Assembly: GCA_035999765.1 (NCBI GenBank)
Contig: CP108521.1
Location: 7,626,001-7,690,000, forward strand
Origin: Streptomyces sp. NBC_01231
Lineage (GTDB): Bacteria; Actinomycetota; Actinomycetes; Streptomycetales; Streptomycetaceae
DNA: 64,000 nt
Direction of reading: 5' to 3'
This document shows positions 31,359 through 46,570 of this stretch, one piece after another. How positions within the stretch are numbered: the stretch's first letter is position 1; each line of letters opens with the position of its first letter. Under the pieces are notes generated by a model that did no database searches, had not been told where the DNA came from, and saw only the letters and a list, made by a program, of their open reading frames with translations. The translations under genes were made by a program, and so were the position numbers.

Positions 31359-31365
31359 CCCGCCC

Positions 31366-31413
31366 GAACGGGCCTGTCATCTCACTCCTGCCAGTGGGAT
31401 GACCGGCCCGTTC
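31366..31413. terminator. Stem-loop terminator after dxs
   Basis: GAACGGGCC pairs with GGCCCGTTC and GTCATC with GATGAC, each separated by one unpaired base, 7 bp after the dxs stop. This gives a long stem of about 15 pairs with a 16-base loop. Confidence 0.8.
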
Positions 31414-31487
31414 GCGTGAATGCGCCCGCGCTGGGCATACGCACTACGCCCCCTCTCATCGAGGACGACCCAGCGTGGGAGGTACCC

Positions 31488-33011
31488 GTGAGCAGCACCC
31501 TCTTCCGGACGAAGAAGGTCGAGCAGTCCATCCTCGATACCGAGGAACCCGAGCACGCGCTGAAGAAATCCCTCTCCGCGCTGGATCTGACCGTCTTCGG
31601 TGTCGGTGTCGTCATCGGCACCGGCATCTTCGTCCTGACCGGCACGGTGGCCAAGGACAACGCCGGTCCCGCCACCGCACTGGCCTTCGTCGTGGCCGGT
31701 GTCGTCTGCGCGCTCGCCGCGCTCTGCTACGCCGAGTTCGCCTCCGCCGTCCCGGTGGCCGGCTCCGCGTACACCTTCTCGTACGCCTCGCTCGGTGAAC
31801 TGCCCGCCTGGATCATCGGCTGGGACCTGGTCCTGGAGTTCGCGCTCGGCACCGCGGTGGTCGCCGTCGGCTGGTCCGGCTACATCGCCTCGCTGCTGGA
31901 CAACGCGGGCTGGCACCTGCCGGCGGCGCTCAGCGGTAGAGAGGGAGCCGACGGCTTCGGCTTCGACATCCTCGCCGCCGCCCTCGTCCTGGTGCTCACG
32001 GCCGTCCTCGTCGTCGGCACGAAGCTCTCCGCGCGGGTCACCGCCGTCGTGGTCGCCATCAAGGTGGCCGTCGTCCTGACCGTGATCGTCGCGGGCGCCT
32101 TCCTCATCGACGGCGACAACTACGACCCGTTCATCCCCAAGGCGCAGACCGTGGACGCGGGCGGTGGTCTCGACTCCCCGCTCATCCAGCTGATGTTCGG
32201 CTGGGCTCCCTCCAACTTCGGCGTGATGGGCATCTTCACCGCCGCCTCCGTCGTCTTCTTCGCGTTCATCGGCTTCGACGTGGTGGCCACCGCCGCGGAG
32301 GAGACCCGTCACCCGCAGCGCGACATGCCCCGCGGCATCCTCGGCTCGCTCCTCATCTGCACCACCCTGTACGTCCTCGTGTCGATCGTGGTGACCGGCA
32401 TGCAGCACTACACCAAGCTGTCCGTGGACGCCCCGCTGGCGGACGCGTTCAAGGCCACCGGGCATCCCTGGTTCGCCGGCTTCATCAGCTTCGGCGCCGC
32501 GGTCGGTCTGACGACGGTCTGCATGATCCTGCTGCTCGGCCAGACCCGGGTCTTCTTCGCGATGAGCCGCGACGGGCTGCTGCCCCGCCTCTTCTCCCAC
32601 GTCCACCCGCGGTTCAAGACCCCGCACCGCCCGACCATCCTGCTCGGTGTGATCATCGCGATCCTCGCCGGCTTCACCAGCCTGAGCGAGCTCGCCGAGC
32701 TGGTGAACATCGGCACGCTGTTCGCGTTCATCGTCGTCGCCATCGGGGTGATCATCCTCCGCAGGACCCGCCCCGACCTGCCCCGCACCTTCCGCACCCC
32801 GCTGGTGCCCGTCCTGCCGATCGTGTCGGTGGTCGCCTCCCTGTGGCTGATGCTCAACCTGCCGGCCGAGACCTGGCTGCGCTTCGGCATCTGGATGGCC
32901 GTCGGCTTCGCCGTGTACTTCCTCTACGGCCGCGGCCACAGCCGTCTCGGACTGCAACAGCGGGCCACCGCCGGCCAGGCGGCGAAGCCGCCGCACGGCA
33001 CCGCGGAGTAG
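31488..33011 (+). CDS. APC-family amino acid permease (YfnA/CAT-like)
   Basis: This membrane transporter has 507 residues and about 12-14 helices. GTG 31488 follows GGGAGG; an upstream GTG at 31416 would add 24 residues. The first helices carry FGVGVVIGTGIFVLTGTVAKDNAGPA, the substrate-binding GTGIF motif of the APC superfamily, and GFDVVATAAEETRHPQRDMPRGI is the classic cationic-amino-acid-transporter block. The C-terminal tail is short and charged. The substrate is probably a cationic or branched amino acid, but this cannot be assigned by eye. Confidence 0.9.
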   Translation: MSSTLFRTKKVEQSILDTEEPEHALKKSLSALDLTVFGVGVVIGTGIFVLTGTVAKDNAGPATALAFVVAGVVCALAALCYAEFASAVPVAGSAYTFSYASLGELPAWIIGWDLVLEFALGTAVVAVGWSGYIASLLDNAGWHLPAALSGREGADGFGFDILAAALVLVLTAVLVVGTKLSARVTAVVVAIKVAVVLTVIVAGAFLIDGDNYDPFIPKAQTVDAGGGLDSPLIQLMFGWAPSNFGVMGIFTAASVVFFAFIGFDVVATAAEETRHPQRDMPRGILGSLLICTTLYVLVSIVVTGMQHYTKLSVDAPLADAFKATGHPWFAGFISFGAAVGLTTVCMILLLGQTRVFFAMSRDGLLPRLFSHVHPRFKTPHRPTILLGVIIAILAGFTSLSELAELVNIGTLFAFIVVAIGVIILRRTRPDLPRTFRTPLVPVLPIVSVVASLWLMLNLPAETWLRFGIWMAVGFAVYFLYGRGHSRLGLQQRATAGQAAKPPHGTAE

Positions 33012-33078
33012 CCGACGCGGAGTAACCGACCGGCTCCGGTGAAGTGGCGGGCCGGGCCGAGGGCGGTGGTGCCGACGT

Positions 33079-33104
33079 GCACGGTCAGGACGGCCTGACC
33101 GTGC
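33079..33104. terminator. Bidirectional stem-loop between permease and NYN gene
   Basis: GCACGGTCAGG pairs perfectly with CCTGACCGTGC around a 4-base ACGG loop. The element overlaps the last codons of the convergent small gene at 33085-33459 and lies 68 bp past the permease stop, so it may serve both. Confidence 0.65.
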
Positions 33105-33459
33105 GCGGCCCCGTCACCTCCGCCCCCAACTCGCCCACCCTGCGCCTGAGTTCGCGATCCGCCGTGACGACCAGCACGGGGCGCCCGCCGGCCCGCGCCA
33201 CCAGCTCGACCATGTGGTCGTCCCCGCTGCCGGGCGCCGCCTCGACCCGTACCCCCGGCACCGGCTCCACACCACGCGCCGCGCCCTCGACCACGAGAAC
33301 GATCTCCACGGGGCCGGAACGCCCCGGCACGCCGTCCGCCGCCAGGCGGTCCCGCAGCCGTTCCGCGGCCCCTCGCCGGTCCCGCCACCAACCGTCGGGC
33401 ACCGACCCGACGACGTTCGCGGCGTCCACGATCACCAGCAGCGGGGCGTTGTCGTCCAT
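33085..33459 (-). CDS. Small NYN/PIN-like nuclease-fold protein
   Basis: This 124-residue cytoplasmic protein has the acidic pattern of the NYN/PIN fold: VIVDAANVVGS at the N-terminus, an Arg-rich helix RRGAAERLRDRLA, SGDDHMVELVARAG in the middle and VLVVTADRELRRRV near the end. The three Asp-containing strand ends fit a metal site. It resembles small YacP-like NTP-binding proteins conserved in Streptomyces. The target RNA is unknown. It ends inside a stem-loop shared with the amino-acid permease. Confidence 0.75.
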   Translation of the reverse strand: MDDNAPLLVIVDAANVVGSVPDGWWRDRRGAAERLRDRLAADGVPGRSGPVEIVLVVEGAARGVEPVPGVRVEAAPGSGDDHMVELVARAGGRPVLVVTADRELRRRVGELGAEVTGPRTVRPS

Positions 33460-33537
33460 GCGGCCAGGGTGCCACGCGCCGCGCCCCGGGGCCTACGCCC
33501 CGGCAGCGCGGGGCCGCCCCGTCGGCCCCCTCAGGTC

Positions 33538-34425
33538 TCAGGCTTCCTTCTCGTCGAAACTGGCGAAGTAGGCGGCGACCATGTCCTCGTCGGCGTGTCC
33601 CTGCGCGGCGGCCCGCTCCAGCCGCTCCGCGCTCGCGGCGGCCACGTCGAGCCGTACGCCGCTCAGCTCGCCGGCCCGGACGATGAGCCGGGCATCCTTG
33701 GCGGCCGTGGAGACCGCGAACTGGGCGGGCGTGAGCCGGTCGTCGAGCACGAGCTGGGACTTGGCCCGCAGATAGCCCATGTCGAGCGGGCCGCCGGCGA
33801 TGGCCTCGAAGAAGGTGTGCGGGTCCACGCCGAGTGCCTGGGACAGGGCCAGCACCTCACCGGCGGCCGCGGTGGCGGCGATGACCCAGCTGTTGGCCAC
33901 CAGCTTCAGCCGGGTCGCGCTGCCCTGGGCGCCGTCCTCGCCGGTCCACACGATGCGGGCGCCGACCGCGTCCAGGACGGGAGCCACCGCGTCGCGGCTC
34001 CCGGTGGGCCCGGCGGCCAGGACGAGCAGCTGTCCGGCCTCGGCGGGCTCGCGGGTGCCCAGCACCGGCGCGTCGAAGAAGACCAGCCGGTGCGCGCGGG
34101 CGAAGTCGGCCAGCTCGCCGATCATCTCGATGCCGGCGGTCGTCGACTGGAGCCAGGCGGCCCCCGGACGCAGGGCGGACGCCGCCTGGCCCATGACGTC
34201 GAGGGCGGCGGGACCGTCGTACAGCATGGTGAGGACGACATCGGCGTCCCGGACGGCCTCGGCCGGGGTGTCGGTGACCGTGATGCCGTCGGCGCCGAGC
34301 GGCTCGGCCTTGTCGCGGGTGCGGTTCCAGGCCCGGACGGTGTGCCCCGCGCGGGCCAGGTTGCGGGCCATCCCGGCTCCCATGATCCCGGTGCCCAGGA
34401 CGCTTACGGTGATGCTGTCGGTCAT
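33538..34425 (-). CDS. NAD(P)-dependent beta-hydroxyacid dehydrogenase family protein
   Basis: This 295-residue oxidoreductase belongs to the 3-hydroxyisobutyrate dehydrogenase / tartronate semialdehyde reductase group. The nucleotide-binding GTGIMGAGMA is at residues 11-20, Asn34-Arg35 follow the second strand, and the catalytic Lys174 sits in RLKLVANSW with Asn178. The substrate-binding motif near residue 119 (DAPVLGTREPAEAGQL) has Thr124 where many members have Ser or Gly. It could also belong to the imine-reductase or glyoxylate-reductase side of the family. It stands alone on this strand. Confidence 0.85.
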   Translation of the reverse strand: MTDSITVSVLGTGIMGAGMARNLARAGHTVRAWNRTRDKAEPLGADGITVTDTPAEAVRDADVVLTMLYDGPAALDVMGQAASALRPGAAWLQSTTAGIEMIGELADFARAHRLVFFDAPVLGTREPAEAGQLLVLAAGPTGSRDAVAPVLDAVGARIVWTGEDGAQGSATRLKLVANSWVIAATAAAGEVLALSQALGVDPHTFFEAIAGGPLDMGYLRAKSQLVLDDRLTPAQFAVSTAAKDARLIVRAGELSGVRLDVAAASAERLERAAAQGHADEDMVAAYFASFDEKEA

Positions 34426-34576
34426 GACGTCGACTTCCTGTTCTCGTACGGCGGTTCTCGTACGGCGGTTCTCGCTGAGGACCAGCCTGCCCGTTCACGG
34501 CGACGACAGCCCGCGGGGGCGACGCCTGTCAGGGGGTGGAACGCGCCGGGTCCCCACGTCCGCTTAGAGTGAACCG

Positions 34577-35593
34577 GTGAACGGCGACTGGCTCATACGC
34601 GGCCGTGACGGCCGGCTCAGCGTGTATCTGCCCGCGGATGACGCCGTCCTGTGCCGGGCCGAGCGCGGCCCGGACGGCCCGTGGGACGCTCCCCGCCGGG
34701 TGGGCGGCGACCAGCGGCTGCAGCCCGTGCTCGCGGTCGGGCAGGGCGGCGACGGCTACGCCCATCTGGCCGCCTGGCGGACCGTCAAGCCCGGTCAGTC
34801 GGCCCTGGTGCACTCGACGCACTTCCGGCCCCGCCTCGCGGCCCTCGACTGGAGTCCGATCGGGCACCCCGACAAGGCGGGCGAGCGCACCGGCGTGCCC
34901 GCCGTCGCGGTCGACGCCCAGGGCCGCGCCCATGTCTTCGTCCGCAACAAGGGCGGCGGGGTGAGCATGGTCGCGCAGAAGGAGAAGGGCGGCTGGAACC
35001 CCTGGCGCGACCTCAAGGGGCGTGACACGCAGGACGAGTTGGCGGCGGTGACGGGGGAGTCCGGACGCGTCGAGCTGTACGCGGCCACGTCCGGCGGGAT
35101 GTCGCACTGGCGTCAGGAGGAGGCGGGCGCCCAGCCGGTTCTGGGGGAGACGATCGAGATCCCGGTCCGTCCCGGCACCCTGCGCGCCCTGGCCACCTCC
35201 CCGGACAGCAGCACGCTCTTCTTCACGGACGTCTCCGGTGACCTGTGCGCCTGGCGTCCCGGCGCCAAGCCCGTCACCCTGCTGGCCTCCGCCGGTCCCG
35301 GCCCGGTCGCCGCCGTGCGCTGCGAACTCGACGGCCATGACTGCACGTTGCTCGCCCAGCGTTCCGCGAGCGGCCGGGTCGCCTTCGCCGCGTACCCCAC
35401 CGAGCAGGAGTCGGCCGGCGCCTGGTGGACCGAGTCGGGGCCCCAACTCCCCCTGGACTCCGAGGTGTCGCTGGCCGTGGACGAGGACGACCGGGTGGTC
35501 GCGGCCACCCTCTCCCCGTCCACCGGACACCTGTTGCTGACCCGGCGCAAGGACGAGCCGGGGCTGGCCCTGGAGGCCTGGCGCCCCGTCTGA
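34577..35593 (+). CDS. Hypothetical protein, beta-propeller-like
   Basis: This 338-residue soluble protein has no clear signal peptide or membrane segment. It is built of repeated beta-rich units with motifs such as GDWLIRGRDGRLSVYLP, AVDAQGRAHVFVRNKGGGVSM and SVAVDEDDRVVAATLSPSTGHLLLT. Tryptophans recur at unit edges (PWDAP, WNPWRDL, SHW, CAWRPG). This looks like a six- or seven-bladed propeller or fucolectin-like fold, but no function can be assigned. GTG 34577 has only a weak GAG-rich site upstream. It precedes the polysaccharide locus by 278 bp; a functional link is unproven. Confidence 0.65.
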   Translation: MNGDWLIRGRDGRLSVYLPADDAVLCRAERGPDGPWDAPRRVGGDQRLQPVLAVGQGGDGYAHLAAWRTVKPGQSALVHSTHFRPRLAALDWSPIGHPDKAGERTGVPAVAVDAQGRAHVFVRNKGGGVSMVAQKEKGGWNPWRDLKGRDTQDELAAVTGESGRVELYAATSGGMSHWRQEEAGAQPVLGETIEIPVRPGTLRALATSPDSSTLFFTDVSGDLCAWRPGAKPVTLLASAGPGPVAAVRCELDGHDCTLLAQRSASGRVAFAAYPTEQESAGAWWTESGPQLPLDSEVSLAVDEDDRVVAATLSPSTGHLLLTRRKDEPGLALEAWRPV

Positions 35594-35871
35594 AGTCCCC
35601 GGCCCCGAGGGCGGCGTGACGTCCCGTCACCTGACGCCGGTACCTGGCACAGGGACCTGACGCGGAAAGCTGATGCGTCAGAGACCTGGGACACATGAAA
35701 CGCACAGAGGGTTGTACGGACGTGCGCGTGACAAGGGCAACGTCAAGAATCTGTGGGTAAAGCGTGAAAATCCTTGTTAGCCTCCCTGCGTTTGTTCGAT
35801 TTCTATCGGGAGACCGACGTATCACCGGCAGCCGACCGAGAGGTCGGTGCAACGGGGTTGGGAATGTTGTT
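35594..35871. other. Leader/promoter region of the polysaccharide locus
   Basis: No gene is seen. A 7-bp stem (CTGACGC / GCGTCAG, 35657-35681) lies 64 bp past the previous stop and may be its weak terminator. The stretch 35740-35830 is AT-rich for this genome and is the likely promoter area. An in-frame upstream start at 35764 exists but has no good ribosome site. Confidence 0.45.
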
Positions 35872-37143
35872 GTGAGCAGATCCTCCACGGTGGATCTTGT
35901 CGTTGTCGGACTCGGTTACGTGGGGCTGCCGCTGGCCCGCTCCGCCGCCGGCGCGGGCCTGAAGGTGATCGGTCTCGACCGCAGCCGGCGTGTGGTCGAC
36001 CAACTGAACGCCGGCCGTTCACATGTGGACGACATCACCGACTCCGAGGTCGGCGCGATGCTCGATCAGGGTTTCCAGGCGGTCGACCGGGCCGAGGTCA
36101 TCGCCGATGCCGCCGCCGTCGTCGTCTGCGTCCCCACCCCGCTCACCGACCACGGCGCCCCCGACCTCGGCGCGGTGCACGCCGCCGTGGACGACATCGC
36201 CGCCCACCTCAGGCCCGGCACGCTCGTGGTGCTGGAGTCGACGACGTACCCGGGCACCACCGACGAGGTCGTCCGCCCCCGTCTGGAGGCCGGTGGCCTG
36301 CGCGTCGGCACCGACTTCCACCTCGCCTTCTCCCCGGAGCGCATCGACCCGGGCAACGCCTCCTTCGGCCTGGAGAACACGCCCAAGGTCGTCGGCGGCA
36401 TCACCGCCGACTGCACCAAGGCCGCCCGCGCCCTGTACGAGCGCTTCGTGCACCGCGTCGTCGAGGCCAAGGGCACTCGCGAGGCCGAGATGGCCAAGCT
36501 GCTGGAGAACACCTACCGGCACGTCAACATCGCGCTCGTCAACGAGATGTCGATGTTCTGCCGCGAGATCGGCGTCGACCTGTGGGACGCGATCAACTGC
36601 GCCTCCACCAAGCCGTTCGGCTTCGCACCGTTCTACCCGGGTCCGGGCGTCGGCGGCCACTGCATCCCGATCGACCCCAACTACCTGTCGTACAAGGTGC
36701 GTTCGCTCGGCATCCCGTTCCGGTTCGTGGAGCTGGCGCAGGAGATCAACCAGCGCATGCCCGTGCATGTGGTCAACCGTGCCGCCGACCTGCTCAACGA
36801 CCAGGGCAAGGCCGTCCGCGGTGCCCGTGTGCTGTTACTCGGCGTGACCTACAAGCCGGACATCTCCGACCAGCGGGAGAGCCCGGCCCTCGCGGTGGCG
36901 GAGAACCTCCTCGCGCGCGGGGCCGAACTCGTCTACTTCGACCCGCGTGTCGAGGACTGGGAGGTCGCCGGCCGGCGCGTCGAGCGGGTGGACGACTACC
37001 TTGCCGAGGCCGCGTCCGCCGACCTCACCGTCCTTCTCCAGCCGCATCGCGAGATCGACCTCGCCGAACTCGCCGACCGTGCAAGGGCGTTGTTCGACAC
37101 CCGGGGCAAGTCCGCCGACCACCCTCGGGTGGTCAAGCTGTGA
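35872..37143 (+). CDS. Nucleotide-sugar 6-dehydrogenase (UDP-GlcNAc/WbpA-TviB-like)
   Basis: This 423-residue NAD-dependent enzyme oxidises carbon 6 of a UDP-sugar to a uronic acid. The Rossmann start VVGLGYVGLPLA is at residues 11-22. The catalytic block is YPGPGVGGHCIPIDPNYL with Cys264, preceded by ENTYRHVNIALVNEMSMFC and TKPFGF. That pattern is typical of WbpA/TviB UDP-N-acetylglucosamine dehydrogenases, whereas UDP-glucose dehydrogenases show GGSCFPKD. It probably makes a UDP-HexNAc uronate, although UDP-glucose cannot be excluded. Codon 322 (36835-36837) is TTA, so the gene should need the bldA tRNA. It overlaps the glycosyltransferase gene by 4 bp and is probably its precursor supplier. 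The GTG start has a weak ribosome site. Confidence 0.9.
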   Translation: MSRSSTVDLVVVGLGYVGLPLARSAAGAGLKVIGLDRSRRVVDQLNAGRSHVDDITDSEVGAMLDQGFQAVDRAEVIADAAAVVVCVPTPLTDHGAPDLGAVHAAVDDIAAHLRPGTLVVLESTTYPGTTDEVVRPRLEAGGLRVGTDFHLAFSPERIDPGNASFGLENTPKVVGGITADCTKAARALYERFVHRVVEAKGTREAEMAKLLENTYRHVNIALVNEMSMFCREIGVDLWDAINCASTKPFGFAPFYPGPGVGGHCIPIDPNYLSYKVRSLGIPFRFVELAQEINQRMPVHVVNRAADLLNDQGKAVRGARVLLLGVTYKPDISDQRESPALAVAENLLARGAELVYFDPRVEDWEVAGRRVERVDDYLAEAASADLTVLLQPHREIDLAELADRARALFDTRGKSADHPRVVKL

Positions 37144-38882
37144 CGTCCGAAGACCCGTACATAGCCGGAGCCGTCGACTCCGGTGGCGAGCGAGGGCACC
37201 GCAAACGCCGGCACCTGAAGGTCTCGTACATCGTCTTCCTCGGCCTCGCCGCGCTGATCGCCACCCGGCTGGACGCGGGCTCCCTGCACCTGTACTCGCT
37301 GGGCGCCATGAGTCTGTTGGCCCTGAAGATGTTCGGTGCCCTCTTCTACCGTCCGGCGAAGGCCGGGCGGGAGGAACTGGAGTACCTGGAGGACGCCTGG
37401 GTCACCGCGGTCATTCCGATCTACAACGAGGACCCGGTGATGTTCGAGCAGGGCATGCGCAGTCTCCTCGCGCAGAGCCGGCTGCCCAACGAGATCCACA
37501 TCATCGACGACGCCAGCGCCAGCGACTCCGGCATCCGGACGGCGAAGAAGATCCGCCGCGAGTTCGAGGCCAAGGGCGTCAAGTACACGGTCAGCGTGCA
37601 GCCCGAGAACAAGGGCAAGCGCGAGGCCCTCGCCCTGGGGTTCCAGGCCGCGCCCTACTCGGACATCTTCCTCTGCGTCGACTCGGACACCGTGCTGTCC
37701 CGGGACACCGTCCGTGAGTTGCTGCTGCCGCTGGCCGACGAGAAGATCATGGCCTCCACCGGCATGGTGCTGGCGCTCAACCATGACAGCAACATCTTCA
37801 CGCGCCTGCAGGACCTGCGCTACGGCAACTCCTTCCTCTTCGAACGGGCCGCGTACTCGCGCCTGAAGTCGGTCCTGTGCTGCTGCGGCGCGCTCTCCGC
37901 CTACCGCGGCACGCTGGTGCGCAAGTACCTCGACGACTTCCTCAACCAGCAGTTCCTGGGGAAGCCGGCCGTCTTCGGCGACGACCGCCGCATGACCAAC
38001 TACTGCCTGATGGAGGGCCAGGTCGTCTTCCAGGAGACCGCCGTGGGCTACACGGCCGTCCCCGAGAAGCTGCCGCACTTCCTGCGCCAGCAGGTCCGCT
38101 GGAACAAGTCCTTCTTCCGCGAGTCCCTGTGGGCCTTCCGCAACCAGAAGAAGTACCGGCCCGCCTTCTGGCTGACCTGCATGGAACTGGCGCTGTGGCT
38201 GGTCTTCGGCTCGGCGATGTTCTACTCGATGGTCATCCTGCCCATCATGAAGCCCGCCCAGTTCGTCAACCACATCGGTGACTACCTGGTCTTCATGGTG
38301 CTCATGGGCTACCTCCGCAATGTGCGCTACCTCGACTTCCCGCGCCGCGGCATGGGCTTCGTCAAACGGTTCGGCATGTTCCTGCTCGCGCCGATCTACG
38401 GCGTGATCCAGCTGACGCTGCTCACCCCGTTGCGCTTCTACGCCCTCTTCACCCTGCACAAGGGCAGTTGGGGCACCCGCCAGGGCGGCGTCGAGGTGTC
38501 CGTGGCCGGCGACCACGAGGCCGACGTGACGGAGATCTTCGAGGAAGAGGACCCGTACTCGGACAAGAAGGTCACCGAGACGCTCCAGTTGATGCGCCTC
38601 GAAGGCGTGGCCCTGCGCACCCGGCCCCGCCCCTCCGACGGCATCCCCAGCCAGCCGCAGCCGCTGCCCGGGTACGACGAGCAGCACGCGCACGTCCCCC
38701 AGCAGCCCGTCACCTGGGGGACACCGGAACCGGCCGGCCGGCAGCAGTGGCAGGGCGGCGGACAGCACGACCCGTACCAGCAGGGGTACGACCCCCAGCA
38801 CCAGAGCGCCCAGCACCAGGGCGGCTACCCGGACCCGTCCTGGCAGCAGGGCGACGGCCAGGGGCACGGACCGGGCTGGTAG
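37140..38882 (+). CDS. Processive GT2 polysaccharide synthase (hyaluronan-synthase-like)
   Basis: This 580-residue membrane glycosyltransferase starts at a GTG overlapping the dehydrogenase stop. Two N-terminal helices (about 28-70) precede a GT2 domain with VIPIYNED (91-98), the metal motif DSD (181-183), GDDR with the acceptor Asp (280-283) and QQVRWNKSFFRES (317-329), the Q(Q/R)xRW motif of processive synthases in nearly the form found in hyaluronan synthases. C-terminal helices at about 341-440 would form the export channel. Residues 500-580 are a Gln/Gly/His/Pro/Tyr-rich, probably disordered cytoplasmic tail absent from class I hyaluronan synthases. With the upstream dehydrogenase it would make a uronic-acid-containing chain. 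The exact sugars are inference. Confidence 0.88.
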   Translation: MTSEDPYIAGAVDSGGERGHRKRRHLKVSYIVFLGLAALIATRLDAGSLHLYSLGAMSLLALKMFGALFYRPAKAGREELEYLEDAWVTAVIPIYNEDPVMFEQGMRSLLAQSRLPNEIHIIDDASASDSGIRTAKKIRREFEAKGVKYTVSVQPENKGKREALALGFQAAPYSDIFLCVDSDTVLSRDTVRELLLPLADEKIMASTGMVLALNHDSNIFTRLQDLRYGNSFLFERAAYSRLKSVLCCCGALSAYRGTLVRKYLDDFLNQQFLGKPAVFGDDRRMTNYCLMEGQVVFQETAVGYTAVPEKLPHFLRQQVRWNKSFFRESLWAFRNQKKYRPAFWLTCMELALWLVFGSAMFYSMVILPIMKPAQFVNHIGDYLVFMVLMGYLRNVRYLDFPRRGMGFVKRFGMFLLAPIYGVIQLTLLTPLRFYALFTLHKGSWGTRQGGVEVSVAGDHEADVTEIFEEEDPYSDKKVTETLQLMRLEGVALRTRPRPSDGIPSQPQPLPGYDEQHAHVPQQPVTWGTPEPAGRQQWQGGGQHDPYQQGYDPQHQSAQHQGGYPDPSWQQGDGQGHGPGW

Positions 38883-38938
38883 GCCCGGGACGGGCCCTCT
38901 CCAGGGCTTCGAGACGGGCCTCTCCAGGGCTCGGTGAA

Positions 38939-38980
38939 CGCAAAAGAGGGGGCGGCCACGTGGCCGCCCCCTCTTTTGCG
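38939..38980. terminator. 42-bp perfect palindrome, bidirectional terminator
   Basis: The 42 bases are an unbroken perfect palindrome centred on CAC/GTG, with AAAAGAGG on the left and CCTCTTTT on the right of each strand. It therefore forms a long hairpin followed by a T-run in both directions. It sits between the convergent glycosyltransferase and deacetylase genes and should end both operons. Confidence 0.9.
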
Positions 38981-38990
38981 TTGCCGGGCC

Positions 38991-40454
38991 TCACGTGTAG
39001 GAGGCCATCGCCTCCTCGACCGTGAGCACCGGGATGCCCCGGTCCTTGATCGCCTGCATCAGCGTGGTGAGACCGGCCTTGCCGATCTCCGTGCTGCTCG
39101 CCGGGGCGCCCTCGACGATCCTGTGGAGGCACAGGATGAGCCAGTCACCGTTGTTCGCGCATCGGTCGAGCTTGCCGCCCGCGCCCGTCACCTTCGACAG
39201 GGCCGTGCCGCCGATGCCCGTGCCGTCGTTGATGCCCGTCAGCGCCTTCAGGCGGTACGGCATGGCCGGGGCGAAGGACTCGATCGTCTCGGAGACGATC
39301 GACCGGGCCGTGGTGAAGTGCCGGCTCGCGATCTGGTCCACCGGAACGCCGTCCGTCGTCTTCTCGAACGACCCGTGCGGATAGGCGAAATGCTCGCTGG
39401 AGAAGCCGTTGCCCACCAGCCACTCGCGCAGCTTCCGGAAGTCCTCGTCCGCCTGTTCCGCGGTGAGCTTGGGGTAGCTGGCGGTGTGCGTGGCGTTCGC
39501 GTAGGAGTGCCCGGCCATCTCCCAGCCCGAGAAGTCCTGCATGGAACGCATCTGATTGACCGTCAGAAAGCTGCCGGTACCGATCGCGTCGGCGATGTTG
39601 TAGACCGTGCCCGGGAAGCCGAACTGGTCCATCGCCGGACGGGCCAGGTCGTGGATCGACTTGTGGGAGTCGTCGAAGGTGAGGGAGACGACGCCCTTCG
39701 GGAACACCGAGGCGGTGTCCGGTATCAGCTCGACGGCCTGCAGCCGGTAGGTCACCGGCCCGCCCGCGTTGTCGTACACGGCGAACGACATGTCGGTGAA
39801 GCCGGTTTTGGTGGACGGTGTGCCCGAGGCGGAGATCGAGTACGTTCCGGCCGCGCCGGCGACGTCGGCCCACTGCAGGTGGACGGTCACCCACTCCCCG
39901 GACTGCACGTAGTTGGCCGATGTCGTCGAATGGGCGTGGAAGGTCCAGGAGAAGTAGTTCGCGAGCGAGCCGCTGCCCAGGTAGAAGACCAGCTTGGACA
40001 GGTTGGCCACGTCGTCGACCCGGAAGACGAGCCTGATCATCTTGCCGGTCAGGTTCTGCGCCGTCATACCGGTCCTGCGGACGTACGACTGCTTGCCGGT
40101 GCCGTTGGTGGTGACCCGCACCGACTGCGTCCCGCGCACGAAGCCCGACGTGTCGTTCGCCTCGGCCGACGCGGTGCCCGCGCCCGCCGGAGTCCAGCCG
40201 TGGGAGGCCTGGAACTGCTGGGACCAGGTGGCCCGGCGGTACTTGGGGCGGCGCCCTGACGGGGCGTAGGCCGGAGGCGTGGTGAGGCCTCCGATGGCCG
40301 CCTCGGCGGCCGTGGCAGCCGCGGGCTGGGCCGCATGGGCGCCCAGCCACGCACCACCTCCGCCCGCCAGGGCGACACCTCCCGTGCCCCCCATGAGCAG
40401 TGCGGCACGCCGGCTCAGTGAGCGGACCGAGGTCCGGGAATGCTCCTTGCTCAA
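38991..40454 (-). CDS. Tat-exported polysaccharide deacetylase (CE4/NodB-like)
   Basis: This 487-residue protein starts at a TTG that overlaps the upstream stop (TTGA) and lies 6 bp after AGGAG; no other start keeps the signal peptide. SLSRRAALLMGG followed by a Gly/Ala-rich stretch is a twin-arginine signal (about 1-50). A beta-sandwich module (about 75-245) with many Thr/Ser/Trp residues precedes a NodB deacetylase domain with SLTFDDSHKS (Asp261, Asp262), GHSYANATH (His316, His323) and AYPHGS. The usual HxxxH metal pair is HxxxN here, with His323 three residues later, so metal binding may differ. It probably modifies the polymer made by the convergent synthase, but a cell-wall target is possible. 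Confidence 0.88.
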   Translation of the reverse strand: MSKEHSRTSVRSLSRRAALLMGGTGGVALAGGGGAWLGAHAAQPAAATAAEAAIGGLTTPPAYAPSGRRPKYRRATWSQQFQASHGWTPAGAGTASAEANDTSGFVRGTQSVRVTTNGTGKQSYVRRTGMTAQNLTGKMIRLVFRVDDVANLSKLVFYLGSGSLANYFSWTFHAHSTTSANYVQSGEWVTVHLQWADVAGAAGTYSISASGTPSTKTGFTDMSFAVYDNAGGPVTYRLQAVELIPDTASVFPKGVVSLTFDDSHKSIHDLARPAMDQFGFPGTVYNIADAIGTGSFLTVNQMRSMQDFSGWEMAGHSYANATHTASYPKLTAEQADEDFRKLREWLVGNGFSSEHFAYPHGSFEKTTDGVPVDQIASRHFTTARSIVSETIESFAPAMPYRLKALTGINDGTGIGGTALSKVTGAGGKLDRCANNGDWLILCLHRIVEGAPASSTEIGKAGLTTLMQAIKDRGIPVLTVEEAMASYT

Positions 40455-41899
40455 CGATTCTCCTGAACGGTGTCGAAGTAGTTCATGCCGTTGTCGCTGT
40501 ACTCCTTGACCGCCGCGTCGACCTGCTGGGCGGAGAGCACGTCCTCGGCGTTGTAGTACAGCCAGTCGACCTGCATGTCCCAGGCGCGGTCGCCCTTGAA
40601 CGGCAGGTCGACGAACCAGTGGTTGAAGTTGATCGACATGCCGGCGCGCGGAGCGTACTTGCCGCTGCTGGAGAAGAGTTTCCTGTCGTCCATCCGGTAC
40701 GTCACCACGTCGTCCTCGACCGTGATCATCATCGTGTGCCAGCCGGCCAGGCTCTTGTTGGTGGTTCTGTAGACGCGGTCGTTCTGCTCGTGGTCGTACC
40801 AGGACACGGTGTCGAGCTTCGGACCGAGCCGGCCCCAACCGCCGTTCGGCATGTACTCGTTGTCGAGCTCGCTGTACGTCTTTCCGCTGCCGCCGATGGT
40901 GTAGAAGGTCTGGTTGACGTGGTCGCCGCCCTTGCCCTCGGCCGGATCGTCGCTGAAGTGGACCCGGGCGGCGTAGGTTCCGTCGCGGAACTCACGCCTC
41001 GCGGTGCCGAGGCTGGCCTGTGAGGTGCCGGACGTGGTGCCGTCGGTGGCCGCGCGCAGGTTCAGCACCTGACCGTCGCCCAGCGCGTCCTTCTCGGCGG
41101 GGAAGGTGACCCCGTCGGCCGACCAGGTGTCGTCGATGCCCGGTCCGCCCTTGCTGCTGCGGACCAGCCAGCCGTGCTTGAACAGCGCGGGGTCCTTGGC
41201 GCCGACGTAGGCGAAGTTGTCGAACAGCACCCCGGGCGGGGCGGCCGGCAGGGGGGCGGGCGCGGTGGCGGCCTTGGCCGACGCGCCCTTCTCACCGCCG
41301 CCGTCCGGCTCGTCACCCCAGGCGAGGACACCCCGCTTGTAGGCGGTGACCGTCTTCGACTCCTTGTACGTGGTCTTCTCCGCGTCGAAGGACCGGTCGT
41401 TGGACTGCGTCAGCTTCTTGTGGTCGGCGCGGTACAACTGGACGTCGATGCCCTTGCTGTTGGCGCCCGACTTCAGCGTGCCCGCGTCCTCGGTGAACCG
41501 CAGCTCCAGGTAGTGGTCGGCGTCCGCGGTGGGGTCGTCGAGCTTCGTCACGGTCCCGGCGATGTTCGAGCAACCCACGGCGGCCTGGACGCAGTTGTAG
41601 GCGTACCCGGAGCCCGCGTCCGTGTCGGCGTCCGCGGTGAAGTAGTACCGCAGCGTCAGATCGGTGAGCGGAAGCGGCTTCTTCGCGTCGTTGAACACCT
41701 CGAGCGACGGCTTGGCCGCCGCGGCGGTGGCCGGGGTGTCGGTGCGGTACCGGACGACGAGCTCCGGCGGATCGGGGTTCGCCGCCTTCCACACGGGATA
41801 CAGCGCGGTGGCACCTGCGGCGACCACACAGACCAGGAGGAGCAGCCTGATCTTGGGCCATAACCGTCGTCGGGGCGGGCGGCGGCGGGTGGACGCCAC
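40451..41899 (-). CDS. Membrane-anchored or secreted CBM3-GH16 protein
   Basis: This 482-residue protein has GTG 41899 placed 5 bp after GAAGGAG. A basic N-terminus and one hydrophobic segment (about 15-35) form a signal anchor or signal peptide. Residues about 62-200 match a family 3 carbohydrate-binding module (SLEVFNDAKKPLPLTDLTLRYYFTAD, HYLELRFTEDAGTL, TQSNDRSFD, GVLAWGDEP). An Ala/Pro linker leads to a jelly-roll domain with ELDNE (344-348), the ExDxE catalytic motif of GH16, whose first and last Glu are nucleophile and acid/base. It would bind and cleave or remodel a beta-glucan-like chain outside the cell. Codon 13 (41861-41863) is TTA. It is translationally coupled to the deacetylase. 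Confidence 0.85.
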   Translation of the reverse strand: MASTRRRPPRRRLWPKIRLLLLVCVVAAGATALYPVWKAANPDPPELVVRYRTDTPATAAAAKPSLEVFNDAKKPLPLTDLTLRYYFTADADTDAGSGYAYNCVQAAVGCSNIAGTVTKLDDPTADADHYLELRFTEDAGTLKSGANSKGIDVQLYRADHKKLTQSNDRSFDAEKTTYKESKTVTAYKRGVLAWGDEPDGGGEKGASAKAATAPAPLPAAPPGVLFDNFAYVGAKDPALFKHGWLVRSSKGGPGIDDTWSADGVTFPAEKDALGDGQVLNLRAATDGTTSGTSQASLGTARREFRDGTYAARVHFSDDPAEGKGGDHVNQTFYTIGGSGKTYSELDNEYMPNGGWGRLGPKLDTVSWYDHEQNDRVYRTTNKSLAGWHTMMITVEDDVVTYRMDDRKLFSSSGKYAPRAGMSINFNHWFVDLPFKGDRAWDMQVDWLYYNAEDVLSAQQVDAAVKEYSDNGMNYFDTVQENR

Positions 41900-42004
41900 G
41901 AGTACTCCTTCGCACGGCACTGAGCGGTTAGTGGGTCGAAACCGTCAGCACAATGTAAACAACTGGTCGGATTATGTGAGGATCCTATCCGTCGGGGCAT
42001 GTCA

Positions 42005-42052
42005 AAGGGGGGCGGAACGCATGGATCGTTACCATGCGCCCCACCCCCCTCA
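42005..42052 (-). terminator. Terminator of the fadA-fadB operon
   Basis: CGCATGG (42018-42024) pairs with CCATGCG (42032-42038), and outer G6CGG and CCCCACCCCCC arms extend the stem. On the minus strand it follows the fadB stop by about 12 bp and leads into a short T-run. Confidence 0.75.
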
Positions 42053-42063
42053 GGGGTATCGCG

Positions 42064-44190
42064 TTACGCCGGGACGCTCGCCACGCCCGGGGCCAGGAAG
42101 GCCTTGCCGTTCACGCGCTCGGAGACACCCTCGCGGTCCAGGTACGGCGTGATGCCGCCCAGGTGGAAGGGCCAGCCGGCACCCGTGATCAGGCAGAGGT
42201 CGATGTCCTGGGCCTCGGCGACGACGCCCTCGTCGAGCATGAGCCCGATCTCCTGCGCCACGGTGTCGAGGACGCGCTCGCGGACCCGCTCCTCGGTGAG
42301 GACGGTGTCGCCCTGCTTCAGCAGCGCGGCTACCTCCGGGTCCAACTCCGGCTTGCCGCTGTCGTAGACGTAGAAGCCACGCTTGCCCGCCTTGACGACG
42401 GCCGCGAGGTTCTCGGAGACCGTGAAGCGGTCCGGGAAGGCCCGGTTGAGGGTCTCGGAGACGTGCAGGCCGATCGCCGGGCCGACCAACTCCAGGAGCA
42501 CCAGCGGGGACATCGGCAGTCCGAGCGGCTCGACGGCCTTCTCGGCGACCTCGACCGGGGTGCCCTCGTCGATGACGTTCTGGATCTCGCCCATGAAGCG
42601 GGTCAGGATGCGGTTGACGACGAACGCCGGGGCGTCCTTCACCAGAACCGCCGTCTTCTTCAGCTTCTTGGCGACACCGAACGCGGTGGCCAGCGAGGCG
42701 TCGTCGGTCTGCTCGCCGCGGACGATCTCGAGCAGCGGGAGGATCGCGACCGGGTTGAAGAAGTGGAAGCCCACGACCCGCTCGGGGTTCTTCAGCTTCG
42801 ACGCCATCTCGGTGACCGACAGCGAGGAGGTGTTGGTGGCGAGGATCGCGTGCGCCGGGGCGACCGCCTCGACCTCCGCGAACACCTGCTGCTTGACACC
42901 GATCTCCTCGAACACGGCCTCGATGATGAAGTCCGCGTCCGCGAAGCCCTCGGCCTTGTCCAGCACACCGGAGACCAGGGCCTTGAGGCGGTTGGCCTTG
43001 TCCTGGTTGATGCGGCCCTTGCCGAGCAGCTTGTCGATCTCGGCGTGGACGTAGCCCACACCCTTGTCGACGCGCTCCTGGTCGATGTCGGTCAGGACGA
43101 CCGGCACCTCGAGGCGGCGCAGGAACAGCAGCGCGAGCTGCGAGGCCATCAGACCGGCGCCGACGACACCCACCTTGGTGACCGGGCGGGCCAGCGACTT
43201 GTCCGGCGCACCGGCCGGGCGCTTGGCGCGCTTCTGCACCAGGTTGAACGCGTAGATGCCGGACCGCAGTTCGCCACCCATGATCAGGTCGGCGAGCGCC
43301 TTGTCCTCGGCGTCGTACCCCTGCTGGAGGTCGCCGTTCTTGGCGGCGGCGATGATGTCGAGGGCGCGGTAGGCGGCCGGAGCGGCCCCGTGCACCTTGC
43401 TGTCCGCGATGAAGCGGCCCTTGGCGACGGCCTGGTCCCAGGCCTCGCCGCGGTCGATCACCGGGCGCTCGACCTCGACGTCGCCCTTGAGGACCTGGGC
43501 GGTCCAGATCAGCGACTGCTCCAGGAAGTCGGCGCCCTCGAAGATCGCGTCGGCGATCCCGAGGTCGAAGACCTGCTGACCCTTGAGCTGCTTGTTCTGG
43601 TTGAGCGAGTTCTCGATGATCACCGAGACGGCCTTGTCGGCGCCGATCAGGTTCGGCAGCAGGGTGCAGCCGCCCCAGCCGGGGACCAGACCGAGGAAGA
43701 CCTCGGGGAGGGAGAACGCCGGGAGCGCCTTGGAGACGGTCCGGTACGCGCAGTGCAGACCGACCTCGACGCCGCCGCCCATCGCCGCGCCGTTGTAGTA
43801 CGCGAAGGTCGGGACCGCGATGCCGGCCAGCCGCTTGAAGACCTCGTGGCCGCCCTTGCCGATGGCCAGCGCGTCCTTGTGCTCCTTCAGCAGCTCGACG
43901 CCCTTGAGGTCGGCGCCGACGGCGAAGATGAACGGCTTGCCGGTGATGCCGACACCGACGATCTCGCCGGCCGTGGCCTCCTTCTCGACCTGGTCGATGG
44001 CGGTGTCGAGGTTCGCCAGCGACGCCGGACCGAAGGTGGTCGGCTTGGTGTGGTCGAAGCCGTTGTCCAGCGTGATGAGCGCGAACCGGCCCGCACCGAA
44101 CGGCAGGTCGAGGTGGCGGACGTGCGCCGACGTCACGACCTCGTCGGGGAACAGCTCGGCCGCGCCCTTCAGGAGTTCAGTGGTGCTCAC
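42064..44190 (-). CDS. fadB: Fatty acid oxidation complex alpha subunit (enoyl-CoA hydratase / 3-hydroxyacyl-CoA dehydrogenase)
   Basis: This bifunctional beta-oxidation enzyme has 708 residues. GTG 44190 overlaps the thiolase stop by 4 bp. The N-terminal crotonase domain carries ITGKPFIFAVGADLKG, the oxyanion-loop block YNGAAMGGGVEVGLHCAYR and EVFLGLVPGWGGCTLLP with its catalytic Glu. The Rossmann start VGVVGAGLMASQLALLFL marks the dehydrogenase half, followed by ATNTSSLSVTEMA and GFHFFNPVAILPLLEIVRG with the catalytic His. With FadA it degrades fatty acyl-CoA in the cytoplasm. Length and domain order are normal. Confidence 0.95.
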   Translation of the reverse strand: MSTTELLKGAAELFPDEVVTSAHVRHLDLPFGAGRFALITLDNGFDHTKPTTFGPASLANLDTAIDQVEKEATAGEIVGVGITGKPFIFAVGADLKGVELLKEHKDALAIGKGGHEVFKRLAGIAVPTFAYYNGAAMGGGVEVGLHCAYRTVSKALPAFSLPEVFLGLVPGWGGCTLLPNLIGADKAVSVIIENSLNQNKQLKGQQVFDLGIADAIFEGADFLEQSLIWTAQVLKGDVEVERPVIDRGEAWDQAVAKGRFIADSKVHGAAPAAYRALDIIAAAKNGDLQQGYDAEDKALADLIMGGELRSGIYAFNLVQKRAKRPAGAPDKSLARPVTKVGVVGAGLMASQLALLFLRRLEVPVVLTDIDQERVDKGVGYVHAEIDKLLGKGRINQDKANRLKALVSGVLDKAEGFADADFIIEAVFEEIGVKQQVFAEVEAVAPAHAILATNTSSLSVTEMASKLKNPERVVGFHFFNPVAILPLLEIVRGEQTDDASLATAFGVAKKLKKTAVLVKDAPAFVVNRILTRFMGEIQNVIDEGTPVEVAEKAVEPLGLPMSPLVLLELVGPAIGLHVSETLNRAFPDRFTVSENLAAVVKAGKRGFYVYDSGKPELDPEVAALLKQGDTVLTEERVRERVLDTVAQEIGLMLDEGVVAEAQDIDLCLITGAGWPFHLGGITPYLDREGVSERVNGKAFLAPGVASVPA

Positions 44191-45413
44191 TTGTCGCCTC
44201 CGGCGTCCTTGTGGTGCGGGTTCTCCCAGATGACCGTCGCGCCCATGCCGAAGCCGACGCACATGGTGGTGAGGCCGTAACGGACCTCCGGCTGCTCCTC
44301 GAACTGGCGGGCCAGCTGCGTCATCAGACGGACGCCGGAGGAGGCCAGCGGGTGGCCGTACGCGATGGCTCCGCCGTACTGGTTGACGCGGGCGTCGTCG
44401 TCCGCGATGCCGTAGTGCTCCAGGAAGGCCAGGACCTGGACCGCGAAGGCCTCGTTGACCTCGAAGAGGTTGATGTCCTCGATCGACAGACCGGCCTGGG
44501 CGAGGGCCTTCTCGGTGGCCGGGATCGGGCCGTAGCCCATGACCTCCGGCTCGACACCCGCGAAGGCGTAGGAGACCAGGCGCATCTTCACCGGCAGGTT
44601 GTGCTCGCGGGCGAAGTCCTCGCTCGCGATGATCGACGCGGTGGCGCCGTCGTTCAGACCGGCCGCGTTGCCGGCGGTTACCCGGCCGTGCACGCGGAAC
44701 GGGGTCTTGAGGCCGGAGAGGTTCTCCAGCGTGGTGCCCGGGCGCATGGGCTCGTCGGCGGTGACCAGACCCCAGCCCGTCTCACCGGCCTCGGCGTTGG
44801 TGCGGCGCACCGAGATCGGGACCAGGTCGGCCTGGATCTTGCCGTTGGCGTACGCCTTCGCGGCCTTCTCCTGCGAGCGCACCGCGTACTCGTCGGCGCG
44901 CTGCTTGGTGATGGTCGGGTAGCGGTCGTGCAGGTTCTCGGCGGTCATGCCCATGAACAGGGCGGACTCGTCGACCAGCTTCTCGCTGACGAAGCGCGGG
45001 TTCGGGTCCACGCCCTCACCCATCGGGTGGCGGCCCATGTGCTCGACACCACCGGCGATGACGGCGTCGTAGGCGCCGAACGCGATGGAGCCCGCGGTGG
45101 TGGTGACGGCCGTGAGCGCACCGGCGCACATGCGGTCGATCGAGTAGCCCGGGACCGACTGGGGGAGACCGGCGAGGATGCCGGCCGTGCGGCCCAGCGT
45201 CAGGCCCTGGTCGCCGATCTGCGTGGTCGCGGCGATGGCGACCTCGTCGATCTTCTTCGGGTCGAGGCCGGGGTTGCGGCGCAGCAGCTCCCGGATCGCC
45301 TTCACGACGAGGTCGTCGGCCCGGGTCTCGTGGTAGATGCCCTTCGGGCCCGCCTTGCCGAACGGGGTGCGGACGCCGTCGACGAAGACGACGTCCTTGA
45401 CGGTACGAGGCAC
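44187..45413 (-). CDS. fadA: Acetyl-CoA acyltransferase (thiolase)
   Basis: This thiolase has 408 residues. The acyl-accepting Cys96 lies in SIDRMCAGAL, and His354 in AYGHPLASSG and Cys385 in TMCVGFGMG complete the triad. It catalyses thiolytic release of acetyl-CoA in beta-oxidation. It is the first gene of the fadA-fadB pair, with the 4-bp overlap typical of a tight enzyme complex. A GC-rich 16-bp palindrome lies 45 bp upstream of its start. Confidence 0.95.
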   Translation of the reverse strand: MPRTVKDVVFVDGVRTPFGKAGPKGIYHETRADDLVVKAIRELLRRNPGLDPKKIDEVAIAATTQIGDQGLTLGRTAGILAGLPQSVPGYSIDRMCAGALTAVTTTAGSIAFGAYDAVIAGGVEHMGRHPMGEGVDPNPRFVSEKLVDESALFMGMTAENLHDRYPTITKQRADEYAVRSQEKAAKAYANGKIQADLVPISVRRTNAEAGETGWGLVTADEPMRPGTTLENLSGLKTPFRVHGRVTAGNAAGLNDGATASIIASEDFAREHNLPVKMRLVSYAFAGVEPEVMGYGPIPATEKALAQAGLSIEDINLFEVNEAFAVQVLAFLEHYGIADDDARVNQYGGAIAYGHPLASSGVRLMTQLARQFEEQPEVRYGLTTMCVGFGMGATVIWENPHHKDAGGDK

Positions 45414-45457
45414 GATGGCTCTCCTCCAGGGTGCGGGATCGGCACTGCTGCGATGCG

Positions 45458-45473
45458 CTGAGCGCGCGCTCAG
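45458..45473. promoter_or_regulatory. 16-bp palindrome upstream of fadA (TetR-type operator candidate)
   Basis: CTGAGCGCGCGCTCAG is a perfect palindrome 45 bp before the fadA start. A second small inverted repeat, TACTTATGAGTA, lies 10 bp further upstream. Fatty-acid genes in actinobacteria are often controlled by TetR-family FadR-like repressors that use such sites. No regulator gene is adjacent. Confidence 0.5.
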
Positions 45474-45532
45474 TACCCATGCTACTTATGAGTAACGTAG
45501 CTGCACAGTCCCCCCGCCCCAAGCGGCGAACG

Positions 45533-46570
45533 TCACACTTTCGGCGGCGCCGTCGAGCCCCGCGGAGTCAGTACCGGAGTGGGCACGGGATGGGACCCAG
45601 GGCCCTCTCCCATGATCACACCGAACAGTGTCCGGGCCGCCTCCGCCCCGAAACCGTGCACGTCGTGGCTCATCGCGGAGAGGGTCGGATGCGTGAGCCG
45701 GCACAGCTGGGAGTCGTCCCAGGCGAGCAGGGAGACGTCGTCCGGCACGCTCAGCCCCATCTCGGCGGCCACCGAGAGCCCCGCCACGGCCATGATGTCG
45801 TTGTCGTACACGATGGCGGTCGGCCGGTCCGGGGGCGCCGCCGTCAGCAGCGCCCGCGTCGCCCGCGCCCCCGCCTCCCCGGAGTAGTCCGTGGCCACCT
45901 GCCGCGCCCCGGCCAGCTTCAGCGCGCGGGCCGCCTCGTCGAAGGCGGCGGTACGCATGGAGGTGTGCCCGAGGGCCGCCGCGCCCCCGACCCGGGCGAT
46001 CCGCCGGTGCCCGAGCGCCGCGAGATAGCGCACCGCCTCCGTCACTGCGTCGGCGTCCTCGGTCCACACGGAGGTGAGGCCACCGGTCAGCGAGGGGTGC
46101 CCGACGGCGACCGCCGGCATCCCGAGCCGCTCGACCCCGGCCACCCGGGGATCGTCCGCGCGGAAGTCGACGAGGATGGATCCGCCGATCTGCCGCCCCC
46201 GCCACCAGGTCTCCTGGAGCCCGACCTCCTCCTCCACGCTCCGCACCAGCCGCAGCAGCAACGAGCAGGAACGCTCGATCAGGACGCTCTCCACCCCCGA
46301 GACGAAGTCCATGTAGAAGGGCTCCAGGCCGAGCAGCCGGGCGGGCCGGCAGATCGCCAGCCCCACCACGTCCACTCGCGACCCGGCCAGCGTCCGGGCG
46401 GTCGGGCTCGGCGCCCAGCCCAGTTCCCGGGCCGCCTCGAAGATCCGGTCGCGGGTCGCCTCCGACAGGCCCGGCTTGTGGTTGAAGGCGAGGGACACGG
46501 CCCCCTTGGACACGCCGGCGCGCGCGGCGACGTCCTTGATGGTGACGCGGGAGGCCGACTGGGCTGTCAT
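45533..46570 (-). CDS. LacI-family transcriptional regulator
   Basis: This is a 345-residue repressor. The N-terminal helix-turn-helix and hinge are classic (VTIKDVAARAGVSKGAVSLAFNHKPGLSEATRDRIFEAARELGWAPSPTARTLAG, residues 9-63), followed by a periplasmic-binding-protein-like effector domain. Its ATG overlaps the beta-mannosidase stop by 4 bp (ATGA), so it is made with the enzyme. The obvious local target is the operator-like word at 49060-49073 between the beta-mannosidase and the importer, with a manno-oligosaccharide or mannose as likely inducer. The same word at 8245-8258 suggests a second target. Confidence 0.93.
   Translation of the reverse strand: MTAQSASRVTIKDVAARAGVSKGAVSLAFNHKPGLSEATRDRIFEAARELGWAPSPTARTLAGSRVDVVGLAICRPARLLGLEPFYMDFVSGVESVLIERSCSLLLRLVRSVEEEVGLQETWWRGRQIGGSILVDFRADDPRVAGVERLGMPAVAVGHPSLTGGLTSVWTEDADAVTEAVRYLAALGHRRIARVGGAAALGHTSMRTAAFDEAARALKLAGARQVATDYSGEAGARATRALLTAAPPDRPTAIVYDNDIMAVAGLSVAAEMGLSVPDDVSLLAWDDSQLCRLTHPTLSAMSHDVHGFGAEAARTLFGVIMGEGPGSHPVPTPVLTPRGSTAPPKV

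What the first reader, a model, noticed from the sequence alone, without database searches (positions are those of the whole stretch)
35872..41899. A compact polysaccharide locus pairing a hyaluronan-synthase-like GT2 with a UDP-HexNAc-type dehydrogenase, a deacetylase and a CBM3-GH16 protein
The sequence shows a synthase with DSD, GDDR and QQxRWNKS motifs fused in operon with a dehydrogenase whose GGHCIPIDP block is of the WbpA/TviB type rather than the UDP-glucose GGSCFPKD type. Facing it are a secreted deacetylase and a membrane or secreted CBM3-GH16 enzyme. Synthesis, precursor supply, modification and trimming are all present. A hyaluronan-like synthase fed by a UDP-GlcNAc-uronate, rather than UDP-GlcA, would give a polymer not matching known Streptomyces exopolysaccharides (CslA glucan, MatAB glucosamine polymer). 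The product identity is inference.
Basis: partly seen in the sequence, partly recalled or inferred. Interest (0 to 1): 0.82.

Follow-up and report, generated by a model that had tools for sequence, protein, structure and literature searches.

The report
Streptomyces hyaluronan-like polysaccharide locus
Four neighbouring genes, kept together in dozens of soil bacteria, look set to build, modify and trim a hyaluronan-like acidic sugar chain, probably one made with an amino-sugar acid instead of the usual glucuronic acid.

Summary
Two overlapping gene pairs converge on a 46-base perfect palindrome: nucleotide-sugar dehydrogenase plus hyaluronan-synthase (HAS)-like GT2 (+), and membrane-anchored CBM3-GH16 protein plus CE4 deacetylase (-). 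It is a real module: 44 of 53 close synthase loci keep all four genes, in several arrangements; in 199 same-genus genomes the close dehydrogenase is in the same 9 that carry the synthase, the deacetylase only in 8 of those 9. The synthase has HAS-type rather than NodC-type residues, including one channel arginine near the uronate, though overall identity to both is about 28-29%. The dehydrogenase falls with UDP-HexNAc rather than UDP-glucose dehydrogenases. UDP-ManNAc is unlikely: 11 of 22 carriers lack a UDP-GlcNAc 2-epimerase. A classical UDP-glucose dehydrogenase is in 13 of 13 carriers. Best reading: UDP-GlcNAc is oxidised to UDP-GlcNAcA and polymerised with GlcNAc by a HAS-like enzyme, then partly de-N-acetylated and cut or anchored outside. 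Nothing was assayed; the product is inference. The CBM3 has lost usual cellulose-binding residues. No listed paper describes the locus. New variant of a known kind.

The parts
35872..37143 (+). Nucleotide-sugar dehydrogenase, UDP-HexNAc type (GGHCIPIDP, ENTYRHVNIALVNE). Most of my searches used 35875-37143, one codon short; searches used the longer frame from 35764.
   Evidence: Pfam/NCBIfam; PDB alignments; tree
37140..38882 (+). Hyaluronan-synthase-like processive GT2, with a Gln/Pro/His-rich C-terminal tail; overlaps the dehydrogenase stop by 4 bases
   Evidence: sequence
38937..38982 (.). Perfect 46-base palindrome with A and T runs between the convergent pairs: likely bidirectional terminator
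   Evidence: checked; no terminator scan was run
38991..40454 (-). Secreted-type protein with a twin-arginine-like N-terminus (SRRAALL, by eye): N-terminal beta-sandwich plus CE4 deacetylase domain; TTG start overlaps the upstream stop by 4 bases
40451..41899 (-). N-terminal hydrophobic helix (residues 14-40) + CBM3-fold domain (about 45-199) + GH16-fold domain (about 220-453) with E-L-D-N-E

Best explanation
The locus makes a synthase-dependent acidic amino-polysaccharide. (1) The dehydrogenase oxidises C6 of a UDP-N-acetylhexosamine, most likely UDP-GlcNAc to UDP-GlcNAcA (inferred). (2) The HAS-like GT2 polymerises it, most likely alternating with GlcNAc, and pushes the chain through its own membrane channel (residues compared with solved HAS; donor inferred; the synthase was not modelled). 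(3) Outside, the CE4 enzyme removes some N-acetyl groups, giving free amines on an anionic chain (inferred from family). (4) The membrane-anchored CBM3-GH16 protein binds, cuts or transfers the chain at the cell surface (inferred). The overlapping reading frames within each pair (seen in sequence) would keep precursor supply with synthesis, and modification with trimming.
Against: No activity or polymer was measured. Overall identity of the synthase to CvHAS and XlHAS1 (28.8%, over the pieces aligned) is no better than to NodC (28.0-28.4%), and NodC is the best NCBIfam model; three basic residues tied to GlcA (K160, R236, R320) are in all 28 rows, NodC included. The dehydrogenase scores far below every equivalog cut-off (254 against 459 and 750), and its sister subfamily (63-66%) sits beside a UDP-GlcNAc 2-epimerase in 4 of 4 loci read, suggesting UDP-ManNAc there. 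CalS8, a TDP-glucose enzyme by recall, also falls on the HexNAc side with a long branch, so that side is not pure. Known hyaluronan loci often carry a dedicated UDP-glucose dehydrogenase although another exists (recalled), so redundancy is weak evidence. More distant synthases beside CBM3-GH16 genes (L160, L161) have no dehydrogenase in the stretch held. G203 and L072 (contigs of equal length, probably the same record) have neither deacetylase nor CBM3-GH16.
Confidence: 0.55

Rival explanations
1. True hyaluronan-like polymer: despite its HexNAc-type motif the dehydrogenase makes UDP-GlcA (or UDP-GlcA comes from the chromosomal enzyme), and the synthase alternates GlcA and GlcNAc as in class I HAS.
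For: The HAS-distinguishing residues are conserved. Two more distant HAS-like synthases (L085, L086) stand beside a classical GGGCLPKD dehydrogenase, and a classical enzyme exists in 13 of 13 carriers.
Against: The dehydrogenase has the GGHC and ENTYR signatures and groups with HexNAc enzymes at 100/99; a redundant second UDP-glucose dehydrogenase would have to have arisen from a HexNAc enzyme.
Confidence: 0.22
2. ManNAcA-containing polymer: the dehydrogenase is a WecC-type UDP-ManNAc 6-dehydrogenase.
For: Best equivalog-type NCBIfam scores are WecC and archaeal UDP-ManNAc dehydrogenase; the sister subfamily lies beside a UDP-GlcNAc 2-epimerase in 4 of 4 loci read.
Against: No epimerase in the locus; 11 of 22 carriers have no PF02350 match, among them two chromosomes in one contig (G236, and L031 S. 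coeruleorubidus).
Confidence: 0.1
3. Neutral chitin- or PNAG-like homopolymer of GlcNAc, later deacetylated; the dehydrogenase serves something else.
For: NodC is the best NCBIfam model (174.6 bits) and overall identity to NodC equals that to HAS; NodC lies beside the NodB deacetylase in the loci fetched; distant loci L160 and L161 have synthase + CBM3-GH16 without a dehydrogenase near.
Against: Score far below the NodC cut-off of 550; residues differ from NodC at R227, F232, L252, GDDR and WGT; dehydrogenase overlapping or next to the synthase in 52 of 53 loci.
Confidence: 0.08

Closest known systems
Class I hyaluronan synthase (CvHAS, XlHAS1) and has-type loci
   Same: Same catalytic motifs and the channel residues tested, WGT gating motif; dehydrogenase gene beside the synthase gene (has loci: recalled)
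   Different: Dehydrogenase is of the UDP-HexNAc type; a deacetylase and a CBM3-GH16 protein are added; 28.8% identity over the pieces aligned
UDP-HexNAc 6-dehydrogenases (WecC, Cap5O; WbpA/TviB reaction)
   Same: GGHC-x-x-x-D-P and ENT[YF]R signatures, common side of the tree
   Different: Below equivalog cut-offs; no 2-epimerase or glycan assembly genes beside it
NodC/NodB and PgaC/PgaB (IcaA/IcaB) synthase-deacetylase pairs
   Same: Processive GT2 with a CE4 deacetylase in one locus
   Different: HAS-type synthase residues, a dehydrogenase present, two-domain deacetylase
CslA-GlxA glucan and MatAB glucosamine polymer of Streptomyces
   Same: Surface polysaccharide by membrane synthase
   Different: Different gene sets and precursors (recalled; one search was seen as a listing only)

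Membership tests
Class I hyaluronan synthase | DxD, GDDR, QxxRW, WGT gating motif | tested here: met
Class I hyaluronan synthase | Residues of the acceptor collar and GlcA channel (XlHAS1 R287, Y288, F292, R296, C307) | tested here: met
   R227, Y228, F232, R236, C247 (roles from passages of PMC11750622). Of these only R227 and F232 separate HAS from NodC; R236 is in all 28 rows
Class I hyaluronan synthase | Makes [GlcNAc-GlcA]n from UDP-GlcNAc and UDP-GlcA | not testable with these tools
   needs enzyme assay
NodC (TIGR04242) | Score at or above cut-off 550 | tested here: not met
   174.6 bits; residues differ
UDP-HexNAc 6-dehydrogenase, broad group | Clusters with WecC/Cap5O apart from UDP-glucose dehydrogenases; GGHC motif | tested here: met
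   CalS8 (GGSC) also falls on this side; substrates of Cap5O and CalS8 recalled, of PH 4r16 from its title
WecC / archaeal UDP-ManNAc dehydrogenase / TviB equivalogs | Score at or above curated cut-off | tested here: not met
   253.7/459, 254.1/750, 184.5/592
UDP-glucose 6-dehydrogenase (TuaD, Ugd, AglM) | Equivalog score; GG[SGY]C-x-P-K-D motif | tested here: not met
   115/700, 45/757, 172/670; motif GGHCIPIDP
CE4 polysaccharide deacetylase | Fold and catalytic motifs (TFDD, His pair, YP-x-G, late His) | tested here: met
   [not shown]
GH16 | Beta-jelly-roll fold and E-x-D-x-E | tested here: met
   Pfam GH16 not called on this protein
CBM3 that binds crystalline cellulose | Planar strip residues (D56, H57, R112, W118 of CipA; recalled, numbering checked by hand on the printed sequence) | tested here: not met
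   [not shown]

The most novel reading that the evidence does not exclude
An 'amino-hyaluronan': a natural zwitterionic glycosaminoglycan of streptomycetes in which GlcNAcA replaces GlcA, partly N-deacetylated, made by a HAS-type synthase with its own UDP-GlcNAc dehydrogenase and remodelled by a dedicated membrane-bound GH16 enzyme.
Probability: 0.35. Interest if true: 0.78.

Novelty: new variant of a known kind. Interest (0 to 1): 0.57.

Why it matters
If right, HAS-type synthases accept an amino-uronic acid donor in nature, and a group of streptomycetes and relatives has an undescribed surface glycosaminoglycan. That would offer a source of a charged, partly deacetylated polymer and a test case for how HAS enzymes choose the acid donor. 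Even if the acid is plain GlcA, it would be hyaluronan-like polymer synthesis native to Streptomyces, which my searches did not list (the lists of 102 and 104 were cut to 12 of 359 and 12 of 616 papers).

Tried and rejected
Cellulose tether: I first thought CBM3 would tie the polymer to a cellulose-like hyphal glucan; the loss of binding-strip residues argues against it. K160, R236 and R320 (CvHAS K177, XlHAS1 R296, CvHAS R341) as proof of an acid donor: rejected, they are in all 28 rows, NodC included. A residue near G250 that tracks the dehydrogenase type: none seen by eye. An RNA element: none at gathering threshold in 30000-46000. Conserved promoter upstream of the dehydrogenase: a block (TGTTAGCCTCC and TTGTTCGA) recurs in many of the Streptomyces rows aligned and is weak or absent in Kitasatospora and Catenulispora; not pursued. 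Actinoplanes EPS clusters (PMC13390465; outline, abstract and passages): Wzx/Wzy and GtrA sets, not this one. A further gene conserved with the four in all clades: none stood out, but its output was cut, so this is weak. A paper search on UDP-GlcNAc dehydrogenase specificity gave nothing usable. In the first epimerase search I used a wrong reading frame; one search corrected it.

Full report
WHAT IS THERE. The window lies in an 11.34 Mb single-contig genome; the best homologues that bear a name are from Streptomyces. Two gene pairs converge. On the + strand a nucleotide-sugar dehydrogenase (35872-37143) overlaps by 4 bases a GT2 synthase (37140-38882). On the - strand a CBM3 protein (41899-40451) overlaps by 4 bases a polysaccharide deacetylase (40454-38991). 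A perfect 46-base palindrome with A and T runs lies between the pairs at 38937-38982. Pfam and NCBIfam agree with these families.

IS IT A UNIT? A scan of genome contigs with an alignment of 18 synthases found 112 stretches encoding a relative and kept 79 loci. I counted L021-L073, the 53 with at least 73% identity; the other 26, at 55% or less, are the distant set. Of the 53, 52 have the dehydrogenase, 49 the CBM3-GH16 gene, 46 the deacetylase, 44 all four. Of the nine incomplete ones, four are on stretches that stop short (L041, L046, L047, L053); L045, L056, L059, L068 and L072 are misses in the stretch held. L050 and L051 come from one assembly, so they are not independent genomes. The CBM3-GH16 gene lies beyond the deacetylase in most, upstream and divergent in seven (L053-L057, L062, L070), and directly after the synthase on the same strand in Catenulispora (L068). 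Flanking genes differ: the amino-acid permease and FadB genes of the window are not found in the stretches of the rearranged group, Kitasatospora and Catenulispora. Such retention through rearrangement argues for function.

In 199 same-genus genomes drawn evenly: synthase in 11 at E 1e-90 or better, 9 of them at 79% or more; dehydrogenase homologues at E 1e-100 or better in 196 of 199, but at 82% or more only in those same 9, the next best listed 67%; deacetylase (E 1e-80) in 8, all among the 9; CBM3-GH16 (E 1e-90) in 23, of which 8 at 58% or more, all among the 9. The ninth, G203, lacks both. In G234 the deacetylase is on another contig than the synthase, about 2 kb from a second CBM3-GH16 copy. 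Genomes are related, so these are not independent events.

THE SYNTHASE. Nearest solved relatives are CvHAS (E 3.8e-34) and XlHAS1 (3.3e-28). In an alignment of 28 rows (two of the rows, L014 and L068, are one sequence) the window protein, CvHAS, XlHAS1 and all 21 relatives put in have R at position 227 and F at 232; both NodC rows have E and C, the paralogue in this genome (L126) has E and C, and a S. canus plasmid synthase (L142) has W and Q. XlHAS1 numbering was checked by hand. By passages of PMC11750622, R287 (our R227) and R296 (our R236) lie near GlcA in the channel and Y288, F292 and C307 surround the first GlcNAc. By passages of PMC12987647, K177 and R341 of CvHAS clamp the GlcA carboxylate; these and R296 are kept here but also in NodC, so they do not discriminate. 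Overall identity does not discriminate either: 28.8% to both HAS pieces, 28.0 and 28.4% to the two NodC. I conclude, from R227, F232, GDDR and WGT, that the channel is more likely of the uronate type; which uronate is not shown.

THE DEHYDROGENASE. The motif is GGHCIPIDP in all 52 dehydrogenases found beside the 53 close synthases. In a tree of 25 rows a 100/99 branch separates E. coli Ugd, Pyrobaculum 3vtf, this genome's own L127, the S. canus enzyme and two synthase neighbours (L085, L086) from WecC, Cap5O, PH 4r16 and ours. CalS8 (long branch) and M. mazei 3g79 also fall on the HexNAc side; E. coli Ugd is a very long branch, and four reference rows have an unlike letter make-up. NCBIfam gives 254 bits to WecC and archaeal UDP-ManNAc models, below their cut-offs; only the general nucleotide-sugar dehydrogenase model is passed. 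The 63-66% sister subfamily lies beside a UDP-GlcNAc 2-epimerase in the four loci read, L154, L157, L158 and L159, with a GT4 between in the three that were scanned by Pfam, so that sister may use UDP-ManNAc. For ours, PF02350 is found in 5 of 8 and 6 of 14 carriers, 11 of 22 in all; half have no known route to UDP-ManNAc. A classical UDP-glucose dehydrogenase is in 13 of 13 carriers tested (the best match of one has an in-frame stop). UDP-GlcNAc is therefore the favoured substrate, UDP-GalNAc is not excluded, UDP-glucose remains a real rival.

ORIGIN. More distant synthases (45-46%) in G068 and G071 have a full-length CBM3-GH16 gene (42-44%) next door but no dehydrogenase in the 13.7 and 16.8 kb held. 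The synthase-GH16 link may thus be older than the link with the dehydrogenase. Other HAS-like synthases stand beside GGHC enzymes (Agromyces L079, L089; Bacillota bins L095, L097) or classical ones (L085, L086); for most of the 26 distant loci no dehydrogenase was found near.

LITERATURE. Searches of the open PMC library listed no paper on this locus; the lists of 102 and 104 were cut. I saw listings only, apart from passages of PMC12987647, PMC11750622 and PMC10939387 and the outline, abstract and passages of PMC13390465. Subscription papers are not held.

VERDICT. Observation confirmed; interpretation plausible and strengthened, product unproven. New variant of a known kind, interest 0.57.

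Noticed in passing
[not shown]
   Followed up: partly
L129 4577-5809 (own genome, about 6.22 Mb): A 51% paralogue of the dehydrogenase has lost the catalytic cysteine (GGHALAQD) and lies beside a glycerol-3-phosphate dehydrogenase gene; possible non-catalytic protein.
   Followed up: no
L126 3330-9811 (own genome, about 0.75 Mb): A second GT2 + GGHC dehydrogenase pair, with PHB-depolymerase-like and PETase-like esterase genes; this GT2 lacks the HAS residues.
   Followed up: partly
L142 5968-9036 (S. canus plasmid): Another related GT2 next to a GGSC dehydrogenase on a linear plasmid; it lacks the HAS residues R227 and F232.
   Followed up: no
L154, L157, L158, L159: Sister dehydrogenase subfamily beside a UDP-GlcNAc 2-epimerase, with a GT4 in three scanned: WecBC-like cassette in Streptomyces.
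   Followed up: partly
L059: In Streptomyces sp. NRRL S-646 the dehydrogenase is not found and the synthase matches only from residue 131, while the exported pair remains: a decaying locus or an assembly fault.
   Followed up: no
upstream of 35872: Conserved blocks TGTTAGCCTCC and TTGTTCGA upstream of the dehydrogenase in many Streptomyces rows aligned; regulator unknown.
   Followed up: no
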